NCBI GenBank assembly: GCA_016873755.1
Contig: VGWB01000006.1
Location: forward strand, 1-41,764
Origin: Ignavibacteria bacterium
GTDB lineage: Bacteria > Bacteroidota > Ignavibacteria > UBA10030
Reading direction: 5' to 3'
Length of the DNA: 41,764 nt
Under the pieces are notes generated by a model. That model made no database searches and had not been told where the DNA came from. It saw only the letters and a list, made by a program, of their open reading frames with translations. Shown here one piece after another: positions 466-4,763 of this stretch (position 1 is its first letter; each line of letters opens with the position of its first letter). The translations under genes were made by a program, and so were the position numbers.

Positions 466-2241
466 TTAGTCCACTTGTTCAGCCCCCAACTCCCGCCTGA
501 GGGCAAGGAGGATGGGGTGTTCTTCACCATTCCCGTCGGTTGGCTTCTGTAACGAACGGGTAGGTGGAGGGTGTGTGAGGTGTTGATTCTCGGGTGGCAT
601 TGAAGATGAACGATGTTGCCTTGATCCGCCGTGGAGCACGGGCTCAATGCGAATCTTCCGTCCTGTGACCTTCTCGAATGAATCACCGAGGAACTCCTGG
701 TGACGTCTCAGTGAGGAAAGGTGGTAATCGTCGGGGCAGGCGATGCGCAGCGCTCCGCCGACCAAATCGAGAATACGGCTCTCGCCCAGAATTGTGCCGA
801 CCCCAATCTTCATCTTCCGCACTTCACCAATCCACTGCTGCCACTGCCCGTACGCCTCTTCGACGCTAATGGCTTGCAGGTTACCAAATGAATCGTTCTG
901 TGCGGCCCTCGTTGATCGGTAGGGCTCTGGGCTCTCTTGAACAGGTGTTGGGGTAACAAGATTCGGAGCGGCCGGATATGTGGCAGCACCTCCCAGTCTG
1001 CCGGCGCTCACCTGCCCTACAATCTTGACCTCGGCTGCGTCGCTGACCTGCAGGGGATGGCCGGCCACCGGTCGCTGTTCCCCATCGTTCCCGTTCAAGC
1101 TAGCTTTTTTTTTCAAATCATCTATTTGTCGCAGGAGGGCGTCAATCTGAACTGAGTGCTCAAGCTTGATCATTTGCAGAAGAGCGGCTTCGAGCTTGAA
1201 GCGTGGCTGTGGTGCCCATCGAATGGACTGTTCCAGCTCGTTTACCAACCTGATCAGGCGCAGGATATCGTTTTGCTGAAAGCTCTTTGCCACCTCCTTA
1301 TAGCGTTCGCGGTACATCTCTGACGCCTCGACGAGCTCTGTTGACTCTGTTGCTAACACGACAAGCAAGTTACGAAGATGCTCGGCGAGGCCGCCCAGGA
1401 ATTCCCGCAGATCATATCCATTCCGCACAATCTCGTCCACCAGCTCTATCCCACCCCGGACATCCCGGCTCTTAATCATATCGGTCACTCGGAAGTAGAG
1501 CTCCTGATCAACGGCGTTGAGTACCTTCAGCACATCTGCCGAACCGATTTCGTTGCCGCAGAATGAGCGGGCCTGGTCAAAAATGCTCTGAGCGTCCCGG
1601 AGCGATCCATCCCCTTTCTTTGCAATGATCATCAACGCGCCATCATCAATTGTTACGCCCTCCCCGCGGGAGATCGTGCGAAGGTTGCTTATCGTCTCGT
1701 CGATTGATATTCGGCGAAAATCAAAGCGCTGACAGCGTGAGAGGATCGTCATTGGAACCTTATGCACTTCGGTCGTCGCGAAGATAAAGACAACGTGCGG
1801 GGGCGGCTCTTCCAGGGTCTTCAGGAGCGCGTTGAAGGCTTCCTTGGTGAGCATGTGGACTTCATCGATGATATAGACCTTGTACTTCCCGCGGGTAGGC
1901 GTGTAACGTACCGACTCGCGCAGGTTGCGGATCTCTTCTACACCGCGGTTGGATGCTCCGTCGATCTCGATCACATCCAGGCTTCGTCCCGCGGTGATTT
2001 CCTGACAGACTTCGCAGCGGTTGTCTGGATTGCTCCCCTTAGGAGATTGGCAGTTGATGGCTTTTGCAAGGATGCGGGCCACGGTTGTTTTCCCTGTGCC
2101 ACGCAGACCGCTGAAAATGTACGCATGCGCAAGCCGATTCGAGGAAATGGCATTCCGCAGGGTGCTCGTGATATGGGGCTGACCGATAACCTCTTCGAAA
2201 ACCATCGGCCGCCACTTGCGTGCGGTTACTTGATAGGACAT
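466..2241 (-). CDS. dnaX: DNA polymerase III subunit gamma/tau
   Basis: Clamp-loader ATPase of the replicative polymerase, 591 aa. Seen: N-terminal motif YQVTARKWRP, Walker A GLRGTGKT (45-52), Walker B IIDEVHML (124-131) and sensor-1 SRC (168-170). The AAA+ core and collar reach about residue 370. A polar linker follows, then a C-terminal domain (about 470-560) of the tau type that binds polymerase or helicase. The small zinc module shows only Cys64, Cys76 and Cys79; the ligand at E. coli position 73 is Asp. Codons 377-379 are a run of nine A (1105-1113 on the minus strand), and slipping either way meets a stop within two or three codons, so a gamma-like short form of 380-381 aa may also be made. 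There is no clear ribosome binding site at the ATG. The upstream neighbour on this strand is lon. Confidence 0.97.
   Translation of the reverse strand: MSYQVTARKWRPMVFEEVIGQPHITSTLRNAISSNRLAHAYIFSGLRGTGKTTVARILAKAINCQSPKGSNPDNRCEVCQEITAGRSLDVIEIDGASNRGVEEIRNLRESVRYTPTRGKYKVYIIDEVHMLTKEAFNALLKTLEEPPPHVVFIFATTEVHKVPMTILSRCQRFDFRRISIDETISNLRTISRGEGVTIDDGALMIIAKKGDGSLRDAQSIFDQARSFCGNEIGSADVLKVLNAVDQELYFRVTDMIKSRDVRGGIELVDEIVRNGYDLREFLGGLAEHLRNLLVVLATESTELVEASEMYRERYKEVAKSFQQNDILRLIRLVNELEQSIRWAPQPRFKLEAALLQMIKLEHSVQIDALLRQIDDLKKKASLNGNDGEQRPVAGHPLQVSDAAEVKIVGQVSAGRLGGAATYPAAPNLVTPTPVQESPEPYRSTRAAQNDSFGNLQAISVEEAYGQWQQWIGEVRKMKIGVGTILGESRILDLVGGALRIACPDDYHLSSLRRHQEFLGDSFEKVTGRKIRIEPVLHGGSRQHRSSSMPPENQHLTHPPPTRSLQKPTDGNGEEHPILLALRRELGAEQVD
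1105..1113 (-). promoter_or_regulatory. A9 slippage site inside dnaX
   Basis: Nine consecutive A in the coding strand encode Lys377-Lys379. With one A lost, the frame reads Lys-Lys-Lys-Leu-Ala-stop; with one A gained (or a -1 shift) it reads Lys-Lys-Lys-Ser-stop. Both alternative frames are thus closed at once, just after domain III. In Thermus thermophilus dnaX an A9 run makes gamma by transcriptional slippage, and E. coli uses a -1 ribosomal frameshift at a shorter A run. The function here is inferred from that precedent. Confidence 0.6.
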
Positions 2242-2369
2242 ACAGTCAGAAAGTAAAGATTAAAATCTAAAAAGCAAAATGGGTGGGTTCGGGATTCGTA
2301 AGAATCGGGAGTCTGGGGGTTCGGTGTACACAGGCACTAGGCCCGCCTGCGTTTGGTCTTTACTTCTCT

Positions 2370-4763
2370 CTATTTTCGCTCATGGAAGACGTACGTCGCC
2401 GCTTCTTCAATTGTTTCCACTGCAAGAATCTTGAGCCCCTCTTTCACCTTCTTCGGAATCTCCGCGAGGTCCTTCAGGTTCTCCTTTGGAACAATGACGG
2501 TCTTGATACCGCTTCGTTGTGCAGCAAGCAGCTTTTCGTTCAAGCCACCAACCGCCAGCACGTTTCCGCGAAGTGTGATTTCTCCAGTCATTGCTACGTC
2601 GTTCCGCGCCGGACGGTTACTGGCTACCGAGATGATTGCCATCGCCATGGTAATTCCAGCCGACGGGCCGTCCTTCGGGATCGACCCTTCCGGCAGGTGG
2701 ATGTGGATTTCTTTTTCTTTCGTGAAGTCTGCGTCAATGCCAAATTTCTTGGCGTTCGATCGGATATAGCTGAGGGCCGCCTGTGCGGATTCTTTCATCA
2801 CCTCCCCGAGTTGTCCGGTAAGCGTGAGCTTCTGCGTTCCCTTCATCACTGTCGCATCCACAGTGAGGATATCGCCCCCGACACTGGTCCACGCAAGGCC
2901 CGTCACCGATCCAACGCGCCGCTCGCGCTCTGCTTCCTTTCTCCGGAATTTAGGAACACCGAGGTAGTGCTCAACTTTTTCCTTTGTGACCGCGAGGGAT
3001 TTCCTGCTTTTTCGTTTTCCAGACGACCCGTCTTTCTGCTTGCGAAGCACAATTTCTTTGGCGGCCTTGCGGCAGATCGAGGCGATTTCTCTCTCCACAT
3101 TTCGCACACCCGCTTCACGCGTATACTCCTGAATGATACGCTCAATCGCCGCGTCTTCAAATCGCAGCTCGCTGTCACCAAGACCGTGGGCGAGCAATTG
3201 CTTTCGGATAATGTGGCGCTTGGCGATCTCGCGCTTGTCATAGTCGAGGTAGCCCGGCAGCTCGATGATCTCCATCCGGTCCTGTAACGGCATGGGAATC
3301 GCGTACCGCACGTTGGCTGTGGTAATGAACATTACCTTGGAGAGATCATAGTCGACATCCAAGTAGTGATCATTGAATGTGTTGTTCTGTTCGGGATCGA
3401 GCACCTCAAGCAACGCCGCAGACGGATCACCCCTGAAATCCATGCTCATCTTGTCGACTTCATCCATTAACATTACGGGGTTGGTTACGCCGGCTCGTTT
3501 CATCGATTGGATGATCTTCCCGGGCATCGAGCCGATATACGTACGGCGGTGACCCCGGATCTCCGCCTCATCACGCACACCGCCAAGCGAGATCCGCACC
3601 AGCTTCCGCCCGAGCGCCCGGGCTATCGATTTTGCCAATGAGGTTTTCCCAACGCCCGGCGGCCCGACAAAACAGAGAATCTGCCCCTTCATTTCCTTTA
3701 CGAGGTTGAGTACTGCGATATGCTCGAGGATCCGTTCCTTCGGCTTTTCCAGTCCGAAATGATCTTCATCCAGAATCTGTTTCACGTGCTGAACATCGAG
3801 GTTGTCCTTGGTCTTCTGCGACCAGGGAACTGCAACCAGCCAGTCCAAGTAGTTGCGCGTTACGGTAAACTCGGGTGACATGGGGGGAGTTTTCTTGAGC
3901 TTGTTGAACTCCTCCACGGCCTTCTCCTCCACTTCCTTCGGCATCCTCGCTTTTTGGATCTGCTCCTTGAGCTTTGCCAGTTCGGGGGAGGCTTCGTCCT
4001 CACCGAGCTCGTCCTGGAGTATGCGAATCTGCTCCTGGATGAAAAACTTCCGCTGTGATTTCTGGATATTGTTTTGAACCTTTGTGTCGAGTTCACGCTC
4101 CATTTTAAGAATATCGATCTCTGTTGTCAGGATCTTTGACAACTCATAGAGTTGTTGCCGCAGGTGCTGGGTCTGCAAAATACGTTGTTTGATATCAACG
4201 TTATGCACAAGGTTTGCAGCCATATAAAAGAGCTTGCGGTGAGGCTCTTTGATTCCCTCAAATGCCATCAAGATCTCCGGCGGCACGTTGCGGCTAAGCT
4301 TGACATACTCCTGAAACAACGCAGAGGTGTGCCGAACAAGGGCATCAACTTCATGGCCTGCCTGCAACTCCGATCTGTTGAGAACAATCTCCGCCTCAAG
4401 AAACGCTGGATTCGGAATGAACTTCTTGATGGTAGCCTGCACAACTCCATCGACGAGGATTTTCATAAGCCCGTTCGGCAGCTTCAGCATCTGGATGATC
4501 TTCGCAACCGTGCCATGATGATAAATATCATCGGCGGTTGGTTCCTCAACGGCGGCGTTCTTCTGTGCAACCAAGAAGATGTTCTTGCCACGCTCCAACG
4601 CCTGGTTTGCGGCCTTCAGTGAGCTTTCCCTGCCAACGAGCACCGGGAAGATCATGTATGGAAAAACTACTACATCCCGTAGGGGCAATACTGGCAGCGT
4701 TGTGGGGATATTGTCGATCGTCTCAACCGCCCCGTCCCCCAGCTTGATCGGTGTCTCGCTCAT
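2370..4763 (-). CDS. lon: ATP-dependent protease Lon
   Basis: Cytoplasmic AAA+ serine protease that degrades misfolded and regulatory proteins; 797 aa, close to the usual bacterial length. Seen in order: N-terminal LON substrate-recognition domain starting at LPVLPLRDVVVFP, a coiled middle region, Walker A GPPGVGKTSLAKSI, a Walker B stretch (VMLMDEVDKM), and a C-terminal protease domain with the catalytic-serine motif KDGPSAGITMA. A basic insert (GSSGKRKSRKS) lies between the ATPase and protease domains. It is transcribed divergently from pxpB, with a promoter candidate at 4841-4869 and a leader hairpin at 4805-4822. The start fits the family N-terminus. Confidence 0.98.
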   Translation of the reverse strand: MSETPIKLGDGAVETIDNIPTTLPVLPLRDVVVFPYMIFPVLVGRESSLKAANQALERGKNIFLVAQKNAAVEEPTADDIYHHGTVAKIIQMLKLPNGLMKILVDGVVQATIKKFIPNPAFLEAEIVLNRSELQAGHEVDALVRHTSALFQEYVKLSRNVPPEILMAFEGIKEPHRKLFYMAANLVHNVDIKQRILQTQHLRQQLYELSKILTTEIDILKMERELDTKVQNNIQKSQRKFFIQEQIRILQDELGEDEASPELAKLKEQIQKARMPKEVEEKAVEEFNKLKKTPPMSPEFTVTRNYLDWLVAVPWSQKTKDNLDVQHVKQILDEDHFGLEKPKERILEHIAVLNLVKEMKGQILCFVGPPGVGKTSLAKSIARALGRKLVRISLGGVRDEAEIRGHRRTYIGSMPGKIIQSMKRAGVTNPVMLMDEVDKMSMDFRGDPSAALLEVLDPEQNNTFNDHYLDVDYDLSKVMFITTANVRYAIPMPLQDRMEIIELPGYLDYDKREIAKRHIIRKQLLAHGLGDSELRFEDAAIERIIQEYTREAGVRNVEREIASICRKAAKEIVLRKQKDGSSGKRKSRKSLAVTKEKVEHYLGVPKFRRKEAERERRVGSVTGLAWTSVGGDILTVDATVMKGTQKLTLTGQLGEVMKESAQAALSYIRSNAKKFGIDADFTKEKEIHIHLPEGSIPKDGPSAGITMAMAIISVASNRPARNDVAMTGEITLRGNVLAVGGLNEKLLAAQRSGIKTVIVPKENLKDLAEIPKKVKEGLKILAVETIEEAATYVFHERK

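What the first reader, a model, noticed from the sequence alone, without database searches (positions are those of the whole stretch)
1095..1113. dnaX carries an A9 slippage run with stops ready in both other frames
Codons 377-379 are nine A in a row, at the domain III/IV boundary. Losing one A gives Lys-Lys-Lys-Leu-Ala-stop; gaining one gives Lys-Lys-Lys-Ser-stop. Either product would be about 380 aa, a gamma-like clamp-loader subunit lacking the tau tail, beside the 591-aa tau. The same layout makes gamma in Thermus thermophilus by transcriptional slippage. Having a stop two or three codons away in both frames is unlikely to be accidental.
Basis: partly seen in the sequence, partly recalled or inferred. 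Interest (0 to 1): 0.7.

Follow-up and report, generated by a model that had tools for sequence, protein, structure and literature searches.

The report
Conserved dnaX A-run makes two subunits
This bacterium's gene for the DNA-replication clamp loader contains a run of nine A's, kept by evolution in most relatives examined, at which RNA polymerase probably stutters so that one gene yields both a long and a short subunit, as is known from Thermus thermophilus.

Summary
dnaX (window 466-2241, minus strand, 591 codons) has AAA AAA AAA at codons 377-379, five residues after domain III. One extra A gives a 380-aa product and one A fewer gives 381 aa.

The run is not chance. A run of A>=9 lies at this boundary in 93 of 132 homologs, against 23 expected from their own codon usage. 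It is kept in three reading phases and at several positions, with compensating changes next to it. Codons 1-365 of these genes never hold such a run. There is no downstream hairpin or Shine-Dalgarno enrichment.

The stop claim is half right. The -1-frame stop (reached by gaining one A) is strongly conserved. The +1-frame stop is at chance level in the window's own family.

Across the phylum sample, dnaX occurs in two arrangements around an A9-A11 run: tau in the zero frame, or gamma in the zero frame with the tau tail always in the -1 frame. They interchange on the tree, in one close comparison by a single A.

Best reading: programmed transcriptional slippage as in T. thermophilus, giving tau plus gamma. 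A contribution from -1 ribosomal frameshifting is not excluded. RNA and protein evidence is missing. New member of a known kind.

The parts
466..2241 (-). dnaX, DNA polymerase III gamma/tau (full-length tau, 591 aa)
   Evidence: TIGR02397 dnaX_nterm E 1e-139; Pfam domains I-III; weak DnaX_C (PF20964, E 3e-4, below its cut-off)
1105..1113 (-). A9 slippage run, codons 377-379 (AAA AAA AAA)
   Evidence: run of A>=9 kept in 93/132 homologs, 32/51 non-redundant
1100..1102 (-). TAG stop in the -1 frame (reached when the mRNA gains one A, or by -1 ribosomal frameshift); gamma-like product 380 aa
   Evidence: stop within 3 codons in 67/92 run-bearing genes versus 17 (rest of gene) or 31 (synonymous) expected
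1095..1097 (-). TGA stop in the +1 frame (reached when the mRNA loses one A or gains two); product 381-382 aa
   Evidence: present here but not conserved in the family
1126..1542 (-). domain III of DnaX (residues 234-372), the last domain kept in the short product
   Evidence: PF12169 E 9e-14
469..1104 (-). tau-specific tail (residues 380-591), absent from the short product
   Evidence: alignable to residue 590-591 in family relatives; PF20964 at residues 461-559

Best explanation
The A9 run is a programmed transcriptional slippage site. RNA polymerase sometimes adds (less often drops) A's while copying the run. Transcripts with nine A's are translated into tau (591 aa). Transcripts whose A count is off by one meet a stop a few codons later and give a gamma-like clamp-loader subunit of about 380 aa (domains I-III only). 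The commonest slip in A/T runs, gain of one A, leads into the -1 frame, and that is the frame whose early stop is conserved. Shown: the run, its selective maintenance, the conserved -1-frame stop, and the absence of E. coli-type stimulators. Inferred: that slippage occurs in this organism, at what rate, and that gamma is made and used.
For: Run length rather than codon or peptide is conserved. Longest A run at codons 366-426 in 132 homologs: 75 A9, 17 A10, 1 A11, only 5 A7/A8, the rest <=6. In codons 1-365 of the same genes no run reaches 9. Synonymous resampling predicts 23 genes with >=9, observed 93 (own family 4.3 vs 22); 51 non-redundant genes: 32 vs 7.9. The run occurs in all three codon phases and at many positions in LKKK, LKKN, EKKK and QKKS contexts; the tree needs at least 12 phase changes. 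When the third codon is AAG or AAC, the codon before the run ends in A in 33/33 genes; when it is AAA, it mostly does not (40 of 46) (non-redundant Fisher p 6e-6). -1-frame stop within 3 codons: 67/92 vs 17-31 expected. No hairpin (mean z -0.28 vs -0.07 at control sites) and no Shine-Dalgarno excess (0.21 vs 0.21); no Rfam dnaX element. In 23 gamma-first dnaX genes from the same phylum group the tau tail always lies in the -1 frame past an A9-A11 run; near-identical Chlorobiaceae genes differ by one A in the run and so swap the default product (L279/L283 A10 tau-first, L282 A9 gamma-first). Literature: T. thermophilus A9 slippage gives about 50% gamma (PMC1088944, PMC5009743); single-base insertions dominate slips in A/T runs (PMC5574713).
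Against: No RNA reads or protein bands were available. Six of 28 family relatives have a broken (L012, L024, L026, L027) or A8 (L013, L015) run, so gamma is dispensable in some lineages. All gamma-first genes use the -1 frame only, which -1 ribosomal frameshifting would also give. The +1-frame stop is not conserved in the family, although slippage should also populate that frame. Homologs are related by descent; the paired test on starred branches had only 5 pairs and could not reach significance.
Confidence: 0.72

Rival explanations
1. -1 programmed ribosomal frameshifting, as in E. coli dnaX: the mRNA keeps nine A's and ribosomes slip back one base on A_AAA_AAA, reaching the same TAG.
For: Any A9 contains an A_AAA_AAN heptamer; the conserved stop is in the -1 frame; 23/23 gamma-first genes use the -1 frame.
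Against: The E. coli site needs only A6G; runs of 7-8 are almost absent and AAG-ended runs are always re-extended to nine by the preceding codon. The heptamer differs with phase while length >=9 stays. No hairpin or Shine-Dalgarno enrichment, no Rfam element. The +1 frame is also closed within 5 codons in 21/23 gamma-first genes.
Confidence: 0.1
2. Both processes contribute in comparable measure: transcriptional slippage at A9 plus -1 ribosomal slipping on the same run.
For: Both lead to the same conserved stop; the T. thermophilus gene is also said to carry a translational frameshift signature (PMC4320859).
Against: No stimulatory element found; not separable here.
Confidence: 0.12
3. The run is there only for the peptide (a Lys-rich linker) or through base composition.
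For: LKKK/LKKN is itself common at this position.
Against: Synonymous nulls that keep the peptide fail by a factor of about four; the focal gene prefers AAG 20:3; the run is kept in families at 50-58% GC and in different peptides.
Confidence: 0.02
4. A replication-slippage (phase-variation) contingency locus that switches tau on and off genetically.
For: Long A runs are mutable; single-A differences between close Chlorobiaceae exist; two assemblies break at the run.
Against: The tau tail is intact in-frame or in the -1 frame in nearly all homologs; a clamp-loader gene expected to be essential is an unlikely contingency gene; stops are arranged to truncate neatly after domain III.
Confidence: 0.04

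Closest known systems
Thermus thermophilus dnaX (transcriptional slippage, Larsen et al. 2000, as described in PMC1088944, PMC5009743, PMC4320859)
   Same: A9 in the sense strand inside a single tau-length ORF; stops downstream in both other frames; short product ends after the clamp-loader domains.
   Different: Unrelated phylum; in T. thermophilus the run lies seven-eighths through the coding sequence (PMC1088944), here at 64%; its stops are 2 and 16 codons away, here both within four codons; slippage proven there, inferred here.
Two-ORF (gamma-first) dnaX with poly-A, e.g. Chloroherpeton and Chlorobium (GeneTack, PMC3711429)
   Same: A7-A10 run after domain III, gamma and tau in frames that differ by one base; same phylum group.
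   Different: There the zero frame gives gamma and recoding gives tau; in the window the zero frame gives tau.
E. coli dnaX -1 ribosomal frameshift
   Same: Same outcome: gamma plus tau from one gene.
   Different: E. coli uses A_AAA_AAG with an upstream Shine-Dalgarno and a downstream hairpin; none of the stimulators was found here.

Membership tests
T. thermophilus-type slippage dnaX | A run of >=9 A (sense strand) inside the tau ORF after the clamp-loader domains | tested here: met
   A9 at codons 377-379, domain III ends at 372
T. thermophilus-type slippage dnaX | Nearby stops in both alternative frames | tested here: met
   products of 380 and 381 aa; but the +1 stop is not conserved in the family
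T. thermophilus-type slippage dnaX | Run maintained by selection | tested here: met
T. thermophilus-type slippage dnaX | mRNA heterogeneous in A number | not testable with these tools
   no RNA reads available
T. thermophilus-type slippage dnaX | Both tau and gamma proteins in cells | not testable with these tools
   no protein data
E. coli-type dnaX -1 PRF | Slippery heptamer A_AAA_AAG in the zero frame | tested here: not met
   focal heptamer is A_AAA_AAA
E. coli-type dnaX -1 PRF | Upstream Shine-Dalgarno and downstream hairpin | tested here: not met
   focal downstream fold z +1.0, no SD-like word just upstream; no enrichment in 92 homologs
Gamma-first (two-ORF) dnaX | Zero frame ends shortly after the run, tau tail in -1 frame | tested here: not met
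   focal zero frame runs to residue 591

The most novel reading that the evidence does not exclude
In the Bacteroidota-type bacteria (the window's Ignavibacteria-like class, Chlorobiaceae and many Bacteroidetes) an ancient A9-A11 slippage switch in dnaX makes tau and gamma. Because mRNA length is already mixed, the gene can drift between tau-first and gamma-first by gaining or losing a single A, so which subunit is 'encoded' is nearly neutral.
Probability: 0.65. Interest if true: 0.65.

Novelty: new member of a known kind. Interest (0 to 1): 0.55.

Why it matters
Whether gamma is an important product has long been disputed. A tau-first slippage run kept across most of a class of bacteria, and a phylum-wide sample in which the two arrangements swap, says that making two DnaX lengths is under selection there, and makes it testable by run-breaking synonymous changes. 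Truncating slippage sites were called hard to predict by comparison (PMC1088944); here run length, phase shifts and compensating codons give a usable signature.

Tried and rejected
Rfam search for the dnaX frameshift element: nothing credible. Hairpin and Shine-Dalgarno search in 92 homologs: no enrichment. Alternative homopolymers in run-less genes: no T run of 9; a few G runs up to 9 in high-GC relatives, not pursued. Synonymous permutation of about 430 kb of the same genome does not show A9 as significantly avoided in coding DNA (2 seen, 1.5 expected), so I do not rest the case on genome-wide avoidance; the evidence comes from homologs. The Larsen 2000 paper is not held. A contig break in G221 that seemed to lie at the run turned out to be in a gene without one.

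Full report
OBSERVATION. dnaX lies at window 466-2241 on the minus strand and encodes 591 aa (dnaX_nterm E 1e-139). Codons 377-379 are AAA AAA AAA at 1105-1113, five residues after the end of the domain III match (residue 372). In silico, A10 gives 380 aa ending KKKS and A8 gives 381 aa ending KKKLA; A11 gives 382 and A7 379.

WHO IT IS. The genome (3.97 Mb, 376 contigs, 97% complete) is unnamed. Two relatives could be matched by contig and coordinates to named records: G031 in the same family equals VGVZ01000002.1, 'Ignavibacteria bacterium', and G081 in the same order equals JAJYOK010000009.1, 'Bacteroidetes bacterium'. Family f37 of the same phylum is Chlorobiaceae (L285 has the contig length of CAIRXW010000021.1). 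So the window is from an Ignavibacteria-like member of the Bacteroidota/Chlorobi group (inference).

IS THE RUN CHANCE? I fetched 132 dnaX homologs from the family, order and class. The longest A run in codons 366-426 is 9 in 75, 10 in 17, 11 in one, 7-8 in five and <=6 in the rest. In codons 1-365 of the same genes it never reaches 9. Resampling synonymous codons from each gene's own usage predicts 23 genes with >=9 against 93 seen; in the window's family 4.3 against 22; for the window gene itself P = 0.0035, as it uses AAG 20 times and AAA 3 times elsewhere. With 51 representatives under 75% identity the numbers are 32 against 7.9.

LENGTH, NOT CODON. The run sits in all three phases and at several positions; the tree needs at least 12 changes of phase among run-bearing genes and 34 changes of configuration. 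The clearest sign is compensation: where the last codon is AAG or AAC, the preceding codon always ends in A (33 of 33), restoring nine A's; where it is AAA, the preceding codon ends in another base in 40 of 46 (non-redundant Fisher p 6e-6). The phylogenetic pair test went the same way in every informative pair but had only 5 pairs on supported branches, too few for significance.

THE STOPS. In the -1 frame (gain of one A) a stop follows within 3 codons in 67 of 92 run-bearing genes, against 17 expected from the rest of the genes and 31 from synonymous resampling. In the +1 frame the counts are 27 against 16-18 overall, and near chance in the window's family (7 against 5.5 synonymous). The closest genus has the +1 stop 26-33 codons away. 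So the near +1 stop in the window is probably incidental. Thermus thermophilus has a similar asymmetry: stops 2 and 16 codons away (PMC4320859). Transcription errors in A/T runs are mostly single-base insertions (PMC5574713), which would lead to the -1 frame.

SLIPPAGE OR FRAMESHIFTING? The 50 nt downstream are no more structured than control positions (mean z -0.28 vs -0.07, p 0.07) and Shine-Dalgarno-like words upstream are not enriched (0.21 vs 0.21). No Rfam element matches. The E. coli-type site needs A6G only, yet A7 and A8 are nearly absent. These favour transcriptional slippage. Against a clean verdict: the conserved stop and all gamma-first genes use the -1 frame, which ribosomal slipping would also reach.

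THE WIDER PICTURE. A phylum sample plus named relatives gave 263 usable genes: 123 tau-first with a run, 23 gamma-first with a run, the rest without or cut short. Outside the Bacteroidota group only one of about 50 genes, from Verrucomicrobiota, has a run; 0 of 26 Bacillota. In all 23 gamma-first genes the tau tail continues in the -1 frame for 115 codons or more (one is cut by its contig end), and in 21 the +1 frame closes within 5 codons. The two arrangements interchange at least 8 times on the tree. In Chlorobiaceae L279 and L283 (A10, tau-first) and L282 (A9, gamma-first) are nearly identical around the run and differ by one A there. Homopolymer sequencing error cannot be excluded for that single case. 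Gamma-first dnaX is already published (PMC3711429); tau-first runs escape such scans, and I found no report of them in this group in the papers searched.

LOSSES. Four family members (L012, L024, L026, L027) have no run and two (L013, L015) have A8.

GENOME CONTEXT. Only 8 A9/T9 runs occur in the genome. L116, L119, L120 and L122 look like terminators, L118 and L121 look intergenic, and L123 falls in a ccmF-like N-terminus (my reading of the sequences). A permutation test on 430 kb did not show significant avoidance in coding DNA.

VERDICT. A real, selected slippage site; T. thermophilus-type tau-first dnaX in a new and large group. Transcriptional slippage as the main mechanism is about 0.72 likely; direct RNA and protein evidence is the missing step.

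Noticed in passing
L279, L283 versus L282 (Chlorobiaceae, family f37): Near-identical dnaX sites differ by one A (A10 vs A9), which switches the zero-frame product from tau to gamma.
   Followed up: partly
L302 (G007:C144 start) and L303 (G094:C435 end): Two assemblies break exactly at the dnaX A run, perhaps from run-length variation in the sampled population.
   Followed up: partly
L123:1501-1509 (own genome, contig C260): A T9 run within the N-terminal codons of an ORF that resembles a cytochrome c biogenesis (ccmF-like) protein, possibly a second coding slippage site or a misplaced start.
   Followed up: no
L074 (Verrucomicrobiota): Only run-bearing dnaX found outside the Bacteroidota group (A9 about 58 codons after residue 366).
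   Followed up: no
L168, L177, L217 (dnaX linkers or tails without an A run): G runs of 8-9 in high-GC relatives that lack the A run; may be chance.
   Followed up: no
window 466-4763: A lon-like ATP-dependent protease gene lies immediately upstream of dnaX on the same strand; no ybaB-recR pair follows dnaX before the contig ends.
   Followed up: no
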